Positions 40,956 to 47,267 of a stretch of DNA of 64,000 nt are shown here, piece after piece. Source of the stretch: Flavobacteriales bacterium. Lineage in GTDB: Bacteria > Bacteroidota > Bacteroidia > Flavobacteriales_F > PHOS-HE28. The stretch is taken from NCBI GenBank assembly GCA_026129465.1, contig JAHCIA010000001.1, positions 3,307,583-3,371,582 of the forward strand. The letters run 5' to 3'. Under the pieces are notes generated by a model that worked only from the letters and a program-made list of their open reading frames with translations, ran no database searches and was not told the DNA's origin. The stretch's first letter is position 1. The number at the start of each line of letters is the position of its first letter. The translations under genes were made by a program, and so were the position numbers.

Positions 40956-42314
40956 GTGATGTGGCGCGGACGGCTCCTCTTGACCTGTCTGTGGTCGGCC
41001 AGCTTACTGCTGTCGTCCTGGGATTCGCATGGGCAGCCTGTGCTCCGGCTCGATGGTGAAAGCAGCGGCACCACGGTGAATGTGCGCGGCACGCTGGAGG
41101 ATGATCCTGCCGCCGTGCCCGCCTTCGAGGCCATCTGGCGTGGGGTGCCCGGCGCCAACGCCGTGTTCCAGTTCCGCCCGCTCACCGCCCCACGCGATGA
41201 CCTGCGCCTGATGCTCGACCGCCTGGTGGAGGCCGGTGTGGGCGCCTACCTCGACAGCCGCGTGCGCTTCACCAAGACCGGCATCGCCGCCGACCTCACG
41301 GCCGAGGCCATGATGCGCGAGTTGGACGCCATGGCCCGCGCGGCCTGCGAGGAGTACGGCGCGGAGGAGGCCTTCGCCGGATTCTCGCCGCCCACCCGCC
41401 AGCAGTTGGATCGCATGCTCCGCATCGATTGGAGCCAGGCGCATCTGGGCATCGACGGTGGCGATGGGCAGGACAAATACCTGGCGATATACCGCTACGT
41501 GCGCACCCAGCGCGAGGAACTCGAACGGCAATTGCGCGCCGATCTGCTGCCGCTCGCCGCGGTGCGCGTGCTGGGGCCCAAGGAGTCGCTTCCCGGCGCC
41601 GAGTTGCGCATCAACTCCACCTGCGGCACCGTCTTCGACGAGGAGAACTTCCTCTGTGCGCTCGATCTTCAGCTGGCCGATACCGGCGGTGGTGGCATCG
41701 ACCCCGCGTTGGGCCAGGCTTTTCTTCGTGCCGTTCAAGAGCGCCCTGCGGTCACGGCCGATACGCCTGTGGCCGAACCGCAGCGCATCCGCAAGCGCGA
41801 CCGCTGGCTGAAGGGCGAGCTGGACAACATCAACACGCGCATCGACCGCATGGACCAGCGCAAGGAGCTGTGGGAACTGCGCGACCGCATGGACGATATC
41901 GAGGACCGCCTCACGGGTCTTGACCTGGAGATGCGCGACCTGCGCGAACAGCGGCGTCCCGAGCCGGACAATCCGATCGCCAACCTCAGCGACCTCACGC
42001 GGCGCAACCTCACCATCCGCTTCGCGCGCAATTCCGTGGCGCTCGATCCGGAGTACCGCATCCTGCTCAACGAGGTCTTCGAGCAACTGGCACGCGCGCC
42101 GCAGCACAAAGTGCTCATCACCGGCTACACCGACCGCAGCGGCGACCCCGCGCTGAACCTGCGCCTCAGTGAGCAGCGCGCCCAGGCCGTGCGCAATTAT
42201 CTGCTGCAGCGCGGCATCGCCCCCGAGCGTCTGCCGGTGAACCACTACGGCGACAGCCGCAGCGTGGGGCGCAATCCCGATGAGCGGAGGGTGGAGGTGG
42301 AGTGGTTGAGGTGA
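40956..42314 (+). CDS. OmpA-family protein with coiled coil
   Basis: 452 residues, signal peptide up to SWDSHGQ. A long novel N-terminal part precedes a charged coiled coil (about 280-325; LDNINTRIDRMDQRKELWEL, then EDRLTGLDLEMRDLREQRR). The OmpA domain lies at about 335-452, with the FARNSVALDPEYRILLNEVF and ITGYTDRSGDPALNLRLSEQ motifs. It probably tethers to peptidoglycan. The N-terminal partner is unknown. Confidence 0.88.
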   Translation: MMWRGRLLLTCLWSASLLLSSWDSHGQPVLRLDGESSGTTVNVRGTLEDDPAAVPAFEAIWRGVPGANAVFQFRPLTAPRDDLRLMLDRLVEAGVGAYLDSRVRFTKTGIAADLTAEAMMRELDAMARAACEEYGAEEAFAGFSPPTRQQLDRMLRIDWSQAHLGIDGGDGQDKYLAIYRYVRTQREELERQLRADLLPLAAVRVLGPKESLPGAELRINSTCGTVFDEENFLCALDLQLADTGGGGIDPALGQAFLRAVQERPAVTADTPVAEPQRIRKRDRWLKGELDNINTRIDRMDQRKELWELRDRMDDIEDRLTGLDLEMRDLREQRRPEPDNPIANLSDLTRRNLTIRFARNSVALDPEYRILLNEVFEQLARAPQHKVLITGYTDRSGDPALNLRLSEQRAQAVRNYLLQRGIAPERLPVNHYGDSRSVGRNPDERRVEVEWLR

Positions 42315-42316
42315 GT

Positions 42317-43906
42317 TCAGCCACGCATGAAGCGCTGCGCGAGCAAGCCTTCGGGCGTCAGCACCCGCATCACATAAGTGCCCGGCGCCAAATGCGCCAC
42401 CGGCACGGACCAGCGCCCCCCCGCCGAACGGCCTTGGGCCACGGCCCGGCCGGTGAGGTCCACAATGGTCCAATGCAGCACGGCGGCATGGGGGCCTTCC
42501 CATTCCACCTGCAAAAGGTCTTGCACGGGTGATGGGTACAGATGCAGCGCCTGCGGCGTGCCATGCTCGGCAATGCCTACCTCCCAGGGGGCGAGTTTGA
42601 CGACCCATACGTCGGCTTCGCCATGGTTGCCTGTGAGGTCGCCATCGGATGACTGGCTATACCCGGTGATGACCACACTACCATCTGAAGCCGGTGCGAT
42701 TCCTTCCGCCAGGTCATTTGTGCTGCCACCCATGGTGCGCTGCCATATGACCTCCAGATCTGAGGATACACATACTACCCAGACATCCAGCCCACCCAAA
42801 GGATCTGAAATGTCTCCATCCGCCGAGATCGTCCTGCCAACGACAATAGCATTGCCGGAAGGCAGCACGTTTATGCCCCCGAAGCGATCATGTGCCGTGC
42901 CTCCGAAGCATTTGGTGCCGATCAACTCCCCGGCTCCATTCAGCTTGACAATCCATGCGTCTCCGCCACCTTGATTGCCGGTGACATCACCATTATTGGA
43001 GTTGGTGTACCCAACCGCCCAGATGGAGCCATCCTGAGCCTCTTTCACATCGTAGAGAAATTCGTTGCCCAATCCGCCAACGCATCGCTGCCAGATGATA
43101 TCCCCTTCGGCATCCACCTTCATGACCCAACCTGTGGTACTGGGTACAGGTTCAGCATAGTAGGGATTGTTGCCGACGAGGTCCCCGTCGTTGGAACTCG
43201 TCTGGCCCACAATGATGCTACCTCCCGCATTGGAGGCGATGACCCGCAAGCCCCCATCACTTTGACTTCCTCCGTAGCACCGGCTCCATATCGTATTGCC
43301 TGCGTTGTCGGTCTTGACCAGCAACATATCTGAGAGGCCATGATTGCCCACCGCATCGCCATCGCTTGAAGTGCTGCTTGCGCAGATCAGGAATCCGTCC
43401 TCAAAAGTCAAAATGGAATAGAGGATATCGAACCCTGATCCGCCCAAGCATCGCTGCCACTCGATCTCCCCGTTGGATTCTAGCTTGACCAGCCAGATCC
43501 GCGGCCCGTTGGATCCCGGGCATTCAACATCACCATCAAATGATGAAGTGGATCCCCCTATAATGTAACCGCCATCAGAAGTTGCGTGGATCACGGCCAC
43601 ATTCTCCTCCCACTCGCTTCCTCCGTAGCAACGCTGCCAATCCATGCTACCGTCCCCCTGTAGCTTGATGACCCATATGTCGCTGAGACCATGATGGCCA
43701 GAGATGTCACCGTCATTGGAGTCCGTACGCCCTGCAATGACGTAGCCGCCATCGCTGGTGGGGGAGATACAATGGCCCGCATCGTGCATGCTGCCGCCAT
43801 AGTTGAACTGCCACAGGATGGTGGGAGGCGTTTGTGCCGCCAGGTACGGAAAGCCACTGGTAGACATGAGGAGGGCCGCCACAGCAATCAAGAGTGGGCA
43901 CCTCAT
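42317..43906 (-). CDS. Secreted T9SS protein of eight propeller-like repeats
   Basis: 529 residues, signal peptide MRCPLLIAVAALLMSTSGFP. About eight repeats of roughly 52 residues follow the pattern GGS..D....I..TSDGGYIIGG.T.S.DGDV.GNHG..D.WVVKL, then a C-terminal region with LHLYPSPVQDLLQVEW and a T9SS-type tail. The repeats probably make a beta-propeller. Repeat-coding DNA (about 42,560 to 43,906) is AT-richer than the sorting-domain DNA (42,317-42,540, about 70% GC by count). The gene follows the S8 protease gene by 2 bp and the two are likely co-transcribed. Confidence 0.85.
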   Translation of the reverse strand: MRCPLLIAVAALLMSTSGFPYLAAQTPPTILWQFNYGGSMHDAGHCISPTSDGGYVIAGRTDSNDGDISGHHGLSDIWVIKLQGDGSMDWQRCYGGSEWEENVAVIHATSDGGYIIGGSTSSFDGDVECPGSNGPRIWLVKLESNGEIEWQRCLGGSGFDILYSILTFEDGFLICASSTSSDGDAVGNHGLSDMLLVKTDNAGNTIWSRCYGGSQSDGGLRVIASNAGGSIIVGQTSSNDGDLVGNNPYYAEPVPSTTGWVMKVDAEGDIIWQRCVGGLGNEFLYDVKEAQDGSIWAVGYTNSNNGDVTGNQGGGDAWIVKLNGAGELIGTKCFGGTAHDRFGGINVLPSGNAIVVGRTISADGDISDPLGGLDVWVVCVSSDLEVIWQRTMGGSTNDLAEGIAPASDGSVVITGYSQSSDGDLTGNHGEADVWVVKLAPWEVGIAEHGTPQALHLYPSPVQDLLQVEWEGPHAAVLHWTIVDLTGRAVAQGRSAGGRWSVPVAHLAPGTYVMRVLTPEGLLAQRFMRG

Positions 43907-43908
43907 GG

Positions 43909-46542
43909 TCAGTTTTGTTTGATGAAGCGGCGGGTATGGACTTCATTGTGGCGGCGCAATAGCAAGCAATAAGCGCCCGCTCTAAGTTGGCCAACTGGCA
44001 TGCGCACCAACCGCTGTGCTCCCATGGCTTCGGAGATCACCTTGCGCCCAAGAGCGTCAATGATCGTCAGCTCCCAACCGGGTGCGGCCAGGTCACCAAT
44101 ATCGATGGTGAGCATGTCGCTGGCAGGATTGGGGTATACCACGATACCATTTCCACTGATGACTTCATCAGTGCTCACTGTGCTTGGTCCCCAGCAGTCA
44201 CCATCGACCACCAATAGCGAGTAGGCAGTGCGAAGCTCGCCGGGCACCGCCGGGAACCATTCGTTCACTACAATGCTGTTGTCTGTACTGTTAAGGATGA
44301 ACCAGGTACTCGTGGTTGCTGTAACATCCACTGAGTTGCCATTGATGACGAACACGTAGTTGGCCCAGGTCCGGCCGTTCACCACGGATCCGCTTCCATG
44401 AGTGCCAATCGTCGAGCTTTCGCGCCCCCAGGAGCCACCCGGGACGATGATCTCGGCTGTGATCGGGAATCCATCAAAGTACTCATGTGTCACCATGACG
44501 CGATAGGCGTTGTACTCCCCGTGCGGAAGCCCCAAGAGGTTGTTCGGAGGAATAGTGATGACTTCGTTGGAGAATTGTTGTGAATCGGTCGATAGTGGTG
44601 CGCTGGAATGGACCACACAATGCGGGGCGGTTACAAGTTCCAATGCCGCTCCAGCATCCAGGCGGCCGTGACCGTGGTAGTCATCGTAGCCCACTTGATA
44701 GTCTTCATAAGGAGGCCATTCCGTTTCCAAGTCGAAGATGTCCTTGGCACTCTGCTCCAGAATATGTTCGATATCCTCGGGCGCTAGTCCATTGGGCGCC
44801 CCGTTGATCACGCTATGCTCAGCGAGCATTAACGCCGCAACACCCGCCACATGAGGCGCGGCCGAGGAAGTGCCTTGGAAACAGGCATATTTCTGAGGGA
44901 ATCCGAATGTTTCCCATGGCAGGTCATTGCAGTTGAGTGCGCTTGGCAACGAACCGCCAAGTGCCGTGAATACGATGTTGCTGCTGCCTGGCGCCACGAG
45001 GTCTAAGCCAAAGTGATGATTGGAGTTGATGGGGACGCCATTGGTGTTGTTGCTCTCGGATAATAATTGCCGTCCATCATCGCCGGTGGCTCCAACACTT
45101 AACATGACACCGTCGCCGATGATCCCATGGGGACCATCGGGATGTTCGGCGAACGCAGATGGCAAGGCTCGAAAGACGGATTGGTCGACACCGTAATTCC
45201 CATGAGAGGCGGCTATGGCACAGTGATTCTGATTGGCGGTAAGTACAGCCTCCGCAAGTAGTATCGGATACGGCTGGGAGGGTGGTGGGTGGTCGGCTCC
45301 CCAACTAATGTTGAGTACATGGCATCCGAAGCCGTTGTTGCTGCCAGAGTTCTGCGAGGAGCCATTCACAACAGCTGCAGCAGCGATATCAAGCTCGAGA
45401 TAATTTGTACCTCCACCAACTACAAGTGGCACGATGGAGGCGCCTGTGTTCCCAGTGCCATTCACATCGCCCCCGGCGATACCAGCGACGCCGATTCCAT
45501 TGTTCCTTAGCGAACCGACTATGCTCGCGCAAGCTGTTCCATGCCAGCCACTGGCATTATAGGTTCCGAGGGTTGGAAGAATTTCTACTCCCGGAGGATG
45601 GTAATCATATCCGCTTAAGATCTTGGTTTGGCCCTGGTATATGAAATCCTCATGGTCCCAGTTTATTGGCGTGTCCACGATCCCCACTTTGATGAAAGGT
45701 TGTCCGGCCTGGATGGCCCATGCGGGTTCGATGTTGATGTGCGCATCAGGATACTCTGCCTTGGGCTTCAGGCTGCTTTGCCACCCTTCGTCGTAGATGG
45801 GATCGTTCGTGTAGAACTGAAAGAGCAAATTGGTGTGGGTATAAGCCAAATGATGGTAAAGCGAACGGAGGCTATCGCAAGCCTCCACCGGCTCCATCCC
45901 GCCGGTCTCCATGCCGAATACGCTCCAGAACTTAGGAAGGCGCAGCTCCTCGCCCAGGCGGCTGACGGAGATGCTGTCGGCGCGCGTCCAGGTCAGGAAG
46001 GTCTTCACTACGCGCAGGCGTGAAGCGGCCACGCCCAGCTTGGCGGCGATGGCGCCCGCCACACTGTCCGGCACCAGCTTGTCCAGCGTGGTGTGCTGCA
46101 TGTTCTTGTTGTCCACGAAGGCGGTGTCCAGCAGGTGCGGCCGGAACTTCACGATCACCTCTCGGTCCAGGTAGAGCGGGTTGCCCAGGCTGTCCAGCAC
46201 GGCATCATGGTCCTTGGTGTACACATCGTATTTGATGGTGGTGTACGCGGTGCCGCCGCCGGGGGTGGCGGTCTGCCCGCTCGCATAGAACACGCCGTTG
46301 CTGCCCATGGTCAGGGCCAGCGCCTTGTCATCGCCCTGCTCCGAGCCGTGCAGCGTGGACCAGAGCAGGGTGCCGTTGGCGGCATAGCGCACGGTGGCGT
46401 ATTGGAGGTTGGTGATGCTGGGTGCGGCACCGGTGACCACCACACCGCCTGCGGTGGACACGGCCATCTTGGTGGCCTGCGCCTGCCAGGTGCCGCTGTG
46501 CGGGCGGAAGGGCGGAACATGTGACAGGGTTGGGATATCCAA
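43909..46542 (-). CDS. Subtilisin-like (S8) protease with T9SS sorting domain, N-terminus unclear
   Basis: 877 residues if TTG 46542 is the start. Catalytic triad: Asp in KVGIVDTPINWDHEDF (about 290), His in ASGWHGTACASIVGS (about 332) and Ser in FQGTSSAAPHVAGVAALM (about 560). The C-terminus has GIVVYPNPASDMLTID and ends RRFIKQN, a T9SS tail. There is no signal peptide and no ATG or GTG. The readable N-terminus starts inside a repeat-like body (STAGGVVVTGAAPSITNLQY). The gene is probably 5'-truncated or its start was replaced by the tetR promoter region. DNA is high-GC for the first about 210 codons and about 50% GC afterwards. Confidence 0.82.
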   Translation of the reverse strand: MDIPTLSHVPPFRPHSGTWQAQATKMAVSTAGGVVVTGAAPSITNLQYATVRYAANGTLLWSTLHGSEQGDDKALALTMGSNGVFYASGQTATPGGGTAYTTIKYDVYTKDHDAVLDSLGNPLYLDREVIVKFRPHLLDTAFVDNKNMQHTTLDKLVPDSVAGAIAAKLGVAASRLRVVKTFLTWTRADSISVSRLGEELRLPKFWSVFGMETGGMEPVEACDSLRSLYHHLAYTHTNLLFQFYTNDPIYDEGWQSSLKPKAEYPDAHINIEPAWAIQAGQPFIKVGIVDTPINWDHEDFIYQGQTKILSGYDYHPPGVEILPTLGTYNASGWHGTACASIVGSLRNNGIGVAGIAGGDVNGTGNTGASIVPLVVGGGTNYLELDIAAAAVVNGSSQNSGSNNGFGCHVLNISWGADHPPPSQPYPILLAEAVLTANQNHCAIAASHGNYGVDQSVFRALPSAFAEHPDGPHGIIGDGVMLSVGATGDDGRQLLSESNNTNGVPINSNHHFGLDLVAPGSSNIVFTALGGSLPSALNCNDLPWETFGFPQKYACFQGTSSAAPHVAGVAALMLAEHSVINGAPNGLAPEDIEHILEQSAKDIFDLETEWPPYEDYQVGYDDYHGHGRLDAGAALELVTAPHCVVHSSAPLSTDSQQFSNEVITIPPNNLLGLPHGEYNAYRVMVTHEYFDGFPITAEIIVPGGSWGRESSTIGTHGSGSVVNGRTWANYVFVINGNSVDVTATTSTWFILNSTDNSIVVNEWFPAVPGELRTAYSLLVVDGDCWGPSTVSTDEVISGNGIVVYPNPASDMLTIDIGDLAAPGWELTIIDALGRKVISEAMGAQRLVRMPVGQLRAGAYCLLLRRHNEVHTRRFIKQN

Positions 46543-46628
46543 GGTAGGTATTCGCGTTGAGCAGCGACCATGGATGCCTGACCATTCGGTATCATTTCTA
46601 TACGATCCCGGGATGATCGATCACCGGA

Positions 46629-46644: not shown

Positions 46645-46664
46645 ACTTGCACCGCCGCCCGCCC

Positions 46665-47267
46665 ATGGCCATGGAAACAACCACCGAGGAACGTATCCTG
46701 GATGCCGCCCGCAGCGTGTTCCTGCGCAAGGGCATGATGGGCACGCGCATGCAGGAGGTGGCCGATGAGGCCGGGATCAACAAGGCGCTGCTGCACTACT
46801 ACTTCCGCAACAAGCAACAGCTGTTCGAGGAGGTCTTTTGCGTGTGCGGCAAGCATGGCATGCAGGGCGTGTGGGAGGAACTCACCCGGGACAGGCCCCT
46901 GTTCGACAACATCAGGGCCTTTGTGCTGGCCTTCCACACCGCCATCGAGCGCGAGCCGCTCTTCCCGCATTTCCTGCTGAACGAATTGCAACGCGACCCC
47001 CAGCACCTGTTGAAGCTGGTGGACCTGGGCAAGGGCGCGCGCCAGATCTTCTTCCAGCAGGTGATGGCGGCCCAGGAGCGCGGCGAGATCATCGCTATCG
47101 ATCCGCGGCAACTGATGGTGAACATCATGGCCTGGTGCCAGTTCCCTCATGTGGCCAGCCCGGTCATCAAGCACGTGGGTGGCATGGACCAGAAAGCTTT
47201 CAAACAATTCCTACAGGAGCGCAGCACGCTGGTGGCCGAGCTCATCATCCGATCCATACGCGCATGA
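46665..47267 (+). CDS. TetR-family repressor of the efflux operon
   Basis: 200 residues. The N-terminal HTH reads RILDAARSVFLRKGMMGTRM, QEVADEAGINKALLHYYFRN, and the ligand domain is helical. ATG 46665 is preferred. ATG 46647 and 46671 are alternatives. A palindrome lies immediately upstream. Its stop overlaps the start of the adaptor gene (ATGA), and the whole tetR-adaptor-pump-TolC series is translationally linked. This points to control of drug, metabolite or lipid export. Confidence 0.92.
   Translation: MAMETTTEERILDAARSVFLRKGMMGTRMQEVADEAGINKALLHYYFRNKQQLFEEVFCVCGKHGMQGVWEELTRDRPLFDNIRAFVLAFHTAIEREPLFPHFLLNELQRDPQHLLKLVDLGKGARQIFFQQVMAAQERGEIIAIDPRQLMVNIMAWCQFPHVASPVIKHVGGMDQKAFKQFLQERSTLVAELIIRSIRA

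What the first reader, a model, noticed from the sequence alone, without database searches (positions are those of the whole stretch)
42560..45930. Low-GC mosaic block with both edges inside T9SS genes
Seen: by line counts GC falls from about 70% to about 50% near 42,560 and returns near 45,930. The left edge lies between the repeat body and the sorting domain of the first gene. The right edge lies at about codon 210 of the S8 protease. Inference: foreign DNA was recombined between host-like ends, so the exported passenger domains changed while the host secretion tail of one gene stayed. This would be domain-level horizontal replacement of T9SS cargo.
Basis: partly seen in the sequence, partly recalled or inferred. 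Interest (0 to 1): 0.72.

Follow-up and report, generated by a model that had tools for sequence, protein, structure and literature searches.

The report
Mosaic, duplicated T9SS cargo gene pair
The GC dip is a pair of neighbouring genes for exported proteins (a protease and a beta-propeller) whose parts have different histories, and this bacterium appears to re-pair its short C-terminal export tags with unrelated cargo proteins.

Summary
The GC dip is real: 55.6% in 42,560-45,930 against 64-66% around it; GC3 about 0.60 against 0.86. It is milder than stated. The genes are an S8 protease (43,909-46,542) and an SBBP beta-propeller, "L" (42,317-43,906), both with T9SS sorting tails.

Foreign DNA spliced between host ends at these two points is not what happened. 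A sister genome carries full-length low-GC S8+L at the same OmpA|TetR site. Window 42,363-46,569 is one of two copies in this genome, without a mismatch over 4,047 bp; an IS1595-type element interrupts the other. Both S8 copies lack the ~390-residue secretory head.

Domain-level mosaicism is still supported. The left edge lies in the propeller/tail linker, and L's tail does not match its sister's L. The right edge (45,882) lies about 10 codons from where the sister's two S8 paralogs drop from 94% to 64% identity. Genome-wide, tail GC3 is poorly tied to passenger GC3 (r 0.35 against 0.83 for a control segment), and near-identical ~230-nt tails occur on unrelated passengers. Related exchange is documented in Porphyromonas gingivalis; this looks like a broader, tail-centred variant.

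The parts
42317..43906 (-). L: SBBP/delta-60-type beta-propeller protein, 529 aa, signal-peptide-like start (by eye), T9SS type A tail; intact in this copy
   Evidence: TIGR04183 25.0 bits (cut-off 23), weak delta-60 and SBBP-lipoprotein matches; AlphaFold model
42317..42544 (-). T9SS sorting tail of L (residues 455-529); not the tail expected from its body's closest relative
42551..42583 (-). Disordered linker (residues 442-452) between propeller and tail; the left GC edge lies here
   Evidence: pLDDT below 50 at 442-452
42317..42362 (-). Last codons of L, divergent from the second copy but in register to the same stop position
   Evidence: 23/46 identical, shuffle p 0.0006
43909..46542 (-). 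S8 protease with T9SS tail, 877-aa frame from TTG; lacks the ~390-aa secretory head of its orthologues
   Evidence: PF00082 8.3e-27; TIGR04183 27.1 bits; orthologues 1169-1402 aa; D/H/S motifs at residues 286, 331, 556 onward
45883..46542 (-). Host-like GC3 (0.89) part of S8: last SBBP repeats and propeptide-like region, codons 1-220
45852..45897 (-). Right edge: GC3 change point here and the position equivalent to the identity break between the two S8 paralogs of G067
43909..44145 (-). T9SS sorting tail of S8 (residues 800-877), orthologous to the sister S8 tail
42363..46569 (.). Segment present twice in the genome (other copy G000:C1:1,908,414-1,914,452); 42,517-46,563 without mismatch
43411..43418 (.). 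TTCCATTT, uninterrupted here; duplicated around the IS1595-type element in the other copy
40956..42314 (+). Left flank: OmpA-family gene, convergent with L, conserved in the genus
46647..47267 (+). Right flank: TetR-like regulator of the RND pump operon (named from sequence and neighbourhood)

Best explanation
The block is a two-gene T9SS cargo unit (S8 protease + SBBP propeller) inherited at the OmpA|TetR site, and it behaves as a set of exchangeable modules. Shown: whole-gene low composition and synteny in the sister species; two near-identical copies in this genome with ends inside the L tail and upstream of a decapitated S8; a paralog identity break in the sister at the same S8 junction as the GC edge; a tail on L that does not match its body's closest relative; tails shared between unrelated passengers elsewhere in this genome. 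Inferred: homologous recombination or gene conversion between cargo paralogs, possibly with DNA from other species, joins modules at domain borders (head and propeptide | protease; passenger | sorting tail). Export would survive such events because the tail is a self-contained signal. A recent event of this sort copied or converted 4 kb between two loci here. S8 is probably no longer exported because its secretory head is gone; L in the window is intact.
For: Sister synteny and composition. Duplicate with zero mismatches over 4,047 bp and distinct flanks. S8 paralog identity break in G067 mapping to window 45,852, beside the GC3 change point at 45,882. L tail rank 53 and 164 against its sister L tails, body best hit, body 52-60% against tail 27-30%. 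Tail GC3 decoupled from body: r 0.35 against 0.83 for a control segment, n 174; ends of non-T9SS genes r 0.71. Tail-sharing with unrelated or <60% identical bodies in 12 of 24 pairs against 1 of 31 non-T9SS pairs; shared DNA begins within 5 nt of the tail start in the unrelated pairs; synonymous codons agree at 0.70-0.99 against 0.44 at random.
Against: The segment just before the tail also correlates less with the body (r 0.58), so part of the composition effect may be positional. The AU test rejects an L-tail clade at p 0.025 but not a wider clade with S8 tails (p 0.114), on only 76 columns. The sharing pairs fall in about five tail groups, so independent events are few. The direction of the tail change is open: the window L tail resembles that of G022's L homologue. 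No recombination event was observed directly.
Confidence: 0.66

Rival explanations
1. One reading: foreign passenger DNA recombined at this locus between host-like ends, leaving the L tail and S8 head of resident host genes in place.
For: Host-like GC3 at both ends and foreign-like GC3 between; L tail unlike the sister L tails.
Against: The sister has the same genes at the same site, low-GC throughout; the S8 step is seen in orthologues; the actual junctions of this copy are elsewhere; S8 head and protease are similarly related to the sister (57% and 65-69%).
Confidence: 0.12
2. No exchange at all: whole low-GC genes with ordinary within-gene variation. Tails evolve under different constraint and codon preference, and passengers simply diverge faster than tails; the duplication is a plain recent segmental copy.
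For: S8 GC3 gradient shared by orthologues; left GC3 edge weak; sorting domains are functionally constrained (established knowledge of T9SS).
Against: Constraint on amino acids does not explain synonymous agreement of 0.70-0.99 in tails of unrelated proteins or its absence in other C-termini. The abrupt 94% to 64% change between G067 paralogs is not a gradient. L's tail is at background identity while its body is 60%, the opposite of a tail that evolves more slowly.
Confidence: 0.18
3. The pair is a mobile unit moved by a recombinase or IS acting in trans, with the composition mosaic incidental.
For: Two copies in each genome, at sites empty in relatives; a perfect 57-bp repeat of the ompA 3' end brackets the insert in G067.
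Against: No recombinase gene inside or beside the window block and no target duplication at its ends. The IS lies inside the other copy with its own 8-bp duplication, so it came later. The left ends are homologous tails, not unrelated target DNA.
Confidence: 0.04

Closest known systems
Porphyromonas gingivalis rgpA/kgp/hagA: domain rearrangement and allelic exchange of T9SS surface proteins (PMC5266723)
   Same: T9SS cargo genes built from modules that recombine; variants of one domain not linked to variants of another
   Different: There the adhesin and catalytic modules vary in one gene family of a pathogen; here the seam is at the sorting tail, across many unrelated passengers of an environmental lineage
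hagA-kgp recombination in P. gingivalis W50 variants (PMC9328147)
   Same: Two cargo genes share a virtually identical 3' end encoding the C-terminal sorting domain, proposed to drive homologous recombination
   Different: Those genes also share adhesin repeats; here some tail-sharing passengers have no homology outside the tail
RgpA/RgpB gingipains (abstract of PMC10319874)
   Same: Abrupt identity change between propeptide (76%) and catalytic domain (97%) of two T9SS proteases, like the G067 S8 paralogs
   Different: In G067 the head is the homogenised part and the protease the divergent part
Polymorphic toxin systems (from own knowledge)
   Same: Logic of a constant export module combined with changing passengers
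   Different: Constant part is C-terminal here; no immunity gene or cassette array seen. A likeness in logic only, not a membership claim

Membership tests
T9SS type A cargo | C-terminal sorting domain over the curated cut-off | tested here: met
   TIGR04183: L 25.0 bits, S8 27.1 bits, cut-off 23
T9SS type A cargo | N-terminal signal peptide: L | tested here: inconclusive
   Hydrophobic start MRCPLLIAVAALLMS... read by eye; no predictor available
T9SS type A cargo | N-terminal signal peptide: S8 as it stands here | tested here: not met
   Frame starts inside the SBBP region; orthologues have ~390 more residues including the secretory start; head not found elsewhere in the genome
T9SS type A cargo | Export depends on the T9SS | not testable with these tools
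   Needs experiments
Subtilase S8 | S8 fold profile and Asp/His/Ser motifs in order | tested here: met
   PF00082 8.3e-27; motifs VGIVDTP, HGTACAS, GTSSAAP
Recently acquired genomic island | Absent from the site in the closest relatives | tested here: not met
   Sister G067 has the pair at the same site; empty in more distant members
Recently acquired genomic island | Integrase, attachment repeats or plasmid/phage relatives | tested here: not met
   None found at the window copy; a 57-bp bracketing repeat exists only in the sister
Gene conversion between T9SS paralogs (P. gingivalis type) | Identity changes abruptly along paralogs at a module border | tested here: met
   G067 S8a/S8b 94% to 63.6%; window/second copy 100% to 97% to divergence in the L tail
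Gene conversion between T9SS paralogs (P. gingivalis type) | Modules give discordant phylogenies | tested here: inconclusive
   L tail against body: ranks and one AU test agree (p 0.025), wider AU test p 0.114; S8 head against protease uninformative
Gene conversion between T9SS paralogs (P. gingivalis type) | Recombination enzyme dependence and tracts in living cells | not testable with these tools
   Needs experiments

The most novel reading that the evidence does not exclude
In this clade the roughly 230-nt T9SS sorting tails form a semi-independent pool: recombination homogenises them and re-pairs them with unrelated passengers, so new cargo can be recruited by a single tail fusion. The S8-L pair is one example with visible seams.
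Probability: 0.45. Interest if true: 0.66.

Novelty: new variant of a known kind. Interest (0 to 1): 0.52.

Why it matters
These genomes carry at least 150 T9SS cargo genes each. If tails recombine separately from passengers, trees of the sorting domain do not follow the proteins, whole-gene tests for horizontal transfer mislead for this class, and the origin of large T9SS repertoires becomes testable: new cargo by tail capture as well as by gene duplication. The S8 paralogs also give a natural experiment on which borders tolerate exchange.

Tried and rejected
(1) Phage or plasmid origin: no match in phages, only weak S8 similarity in four plasmid records. (2) Second copy as the ancestral site: rejected, because about 34 relatives have the OMP and UDG genes about 1 kb apart with no S8-L. 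(3) Window L tail as a remnant of the kelch T9SS gene that some relatives have next to TetR: tails not close. (4) L tail borrowed recently from another gene of this genome: the only near match is the second copy; next best 34% aa, and one 31-bp DNA match. (5) Last 46 nt of L as captured spacer DNA: no resemblance by eye to relatives' OmpA-TetR spacers; in register with a T9SS tail instead. (6) Head/protease discordance of S8 in this genome: available species place it with G067 on both sides, so uninformative. (7) A structure model of S8 failed (pLDDT 31) and is not used. (9) Literature searches found no paper on T9SS tail exchange outside P. gingivalis; the library is partial.
Full report
WHAT WAS CLAIMED. 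A 3.4-kb low-GC block with both edges inside T9SS genes, read as foreign passenger DNA recombined between host ends.

THE OBSERVATION. It holds. GC is 0.556 in the block and 0.65-0.66 beside it; 0.08% of equally long windows in the 64 kb are as low. GC3 falls from 0.85-0.90 in neighbouring genes to about 0.60. In S8 the GC3 change point is codon 220 (window 45,882, interval 45,897-45,867), 0.89 to 0.60. In L the best point is 42,463 with a broad interval (42,682-42,418) and p 0.04.

THE GENES. On the minus strand lie an 877-aa S8 protease frame (PF00082 8.3e-27; T9SS tail 27.1 bits) and a 529-aa SBBP-type propeller, L (T9SS tail 25.0 bits). A model of L (mean pLDDT 68) shows repeated strands from 30 to 438, a disordered linker at 442-452 (window 42,551-42,583) and a beta-rich tail at 454-528. 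The left edge is therefore a domain linker. The S8 model was useless.

A SECOND COPY. The same genome holds S8 with 100% aa identity at C1:1,908,441 and L in two pieces. Window 42,363-46,569 matches that locus at DNA level: 42,517-46,563 has no mismatch, four mismatches fall in 42,367-42,516, and beyond both ends the sequences differ. The other copy is cut by a 1,824-bp element with an IS1595-type transposase and an 8-bp duplication TTCCATTT; the window keeps the uncut site. After 42,362 the two L genes run in register to the same stop position with 23/46 identical bases (shuffle p 0.0006), as expected of two related tails rather than random DNA. All four mismatches inside L lie next to that end, which suggests a recombination border in the tail (inference).

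BOTH S8 COPIES ARE DECAPITATED. Orthologues are 1169-1402 aa, with a secretory start and SBBP repeats upstream. About 390 codons are missing here, and no separate copy of the head was found in the genome. S8 is probably not exported now (inference).

WHERE THE PAIR BELONGS. In five genus members OmpA is followed directly, or nearly so, by TetR; in others the gap holds unrelated genes, including a histidine kinase and a kelch T9SS gene. The second locus is empty in about 34 relatives; there this genome also lacks an OsmC-like gene that relatives have. The sister genome G067 (contig JAHBUK010000004.1, Flavobacteriales MAG) has full-length S8 and L, both low-GC (GC3 0.56, 0.49), at the OmpA|TetR site, and a second pair 12 kb away. 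The site is therefore inherited, and the local 'foreign insert between host ends' model fails. In G067 the insert is bracketed by a perfect 57-bp repeat of the ompA 3' end, probably a footprint of the original insertion; how that happened is unknown.

THE RIGHT EDGE. GC3 is raised around S8 residues 60-210 in other species too, less strongly; in G067a the change point is at about residue 199. The edge was thus not made here. But G067's two S8 genes are 94% identical (codon-aligned nt) up to codon 620 and 63.6% after it, and that point maps to G000 residue 231, window 45,852, about 10 codons from the G000 GC3 change point. Two different kinds of evidence meet near the propeptide/protease border. 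I take this as a border used by recombination (inference from the abrupt identity change).

THE LEFT EDGE. L's body is 52% and 60% identical to the sister's two L proteins, its tail 27% and 30% (p 8e-5 and 2e-6). Random T9SS tails of this genome have a median identity of 30%. Among about 300 tails the sister L tails rank only 53rd and 164th for the window L tail, while the window S8 tail finds a sister S8 tail first after its own copy. A tail tree separates them; a clade of L tails is rejected (p 0.025), a wider clade with S8 tails is not (p 0.114). The closest tail among L homologues is that of G022, so which lineage changed is open.

GENOME-WIDE TEST. This genome has at least 150 T9SS tails. 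In 174 genes GC3 of the rest of the body predicts a control segment (r 0.83) far better than the tail (r 0.35; bootstrap difference 0.31-0.64). The segment just before the tail is intermediate (0.58), so part of the effect may be positional; yet the ends of non-T9SS genes still follow their bodies (r 0.71). The sister shows the same tendency in 31 genes (0.58 against 0.90). Of 24 gene pairs with tails at least 78% identical over 150 nt, 12 have bodies without homology or under 60% aa, against 1 of 31 for other proteins' C-termini and 0 of 1 for T9SS N-segments (Fisher 6e-5). In the five pairs with unrelated bodies the shared DNA begins within 5 nt of the tail start and ends within 5 nt of the end of the stop codon. 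Synonymous codons in six such tail pairs agree at 0.70-0.99 against 0.44 at random. The twelve pairs fall in about five tail groups, so the number of independent events is of that order.

KNOWN PARALLELS. P. gingivalis recombines modules of T9SS cargo (PMC5266723), shares a virtually identical 3' end encoding the sorting domain between hagA and kgp (PMC9328147), and shows a propeptide/catalytic identity change between RgpA and RgpB (abstract of PMC10319874). The present case is of that kind but centred on the tail, genome-wide, in an environmental lineage.

VERDICT. Observation confirmed. The local interpretation is largely wrong. Mechanism and direction remain inferred.

Noticed in passing
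L226 (G067:C4) 608,393-608,449 and 613,925-613,981: A perfect 57-bp direct repeat of the ompA 3' end brackets the S8-L insert in the sister genome; the insertion mechanism is unknown.
   Followed up: partly
L070 16,573-18,396: 1,824-bp IS1595-family element with 8-bp duplication inside the second L copy; besides the transposase it carries overlapping frames of 303 and 238 aa without Pfam match.
   Followed up: partly
window 46,647-47,267: The TetR gene is 90% identical to that of G019, although OmpA and the pump genes beside it are only 50-70% identical between the two: TetR alone may have been exchanged recently.
   Followed up: no
L070/L071 between the OMP gene (L070 12,472-13,227) and UDG (L071 66-566): An OsmC-like gene present here in relatives is missing in this genome at the second S8-L site.
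   Followed up: partly
G000:C1 near 743,426-745,262: Two neighbouring T9SS genes share a 79% identical 1.6-kb stretch and 90% identical tails, a tandem duplication.
   Followed up: no
L073, L074, L075, L076 upstream of S8: In several relatives the S8(-L) cluster lies beside a small divergently transcribed gene that looks like an XRE-type regulator (named by eye).
   Followed up: no
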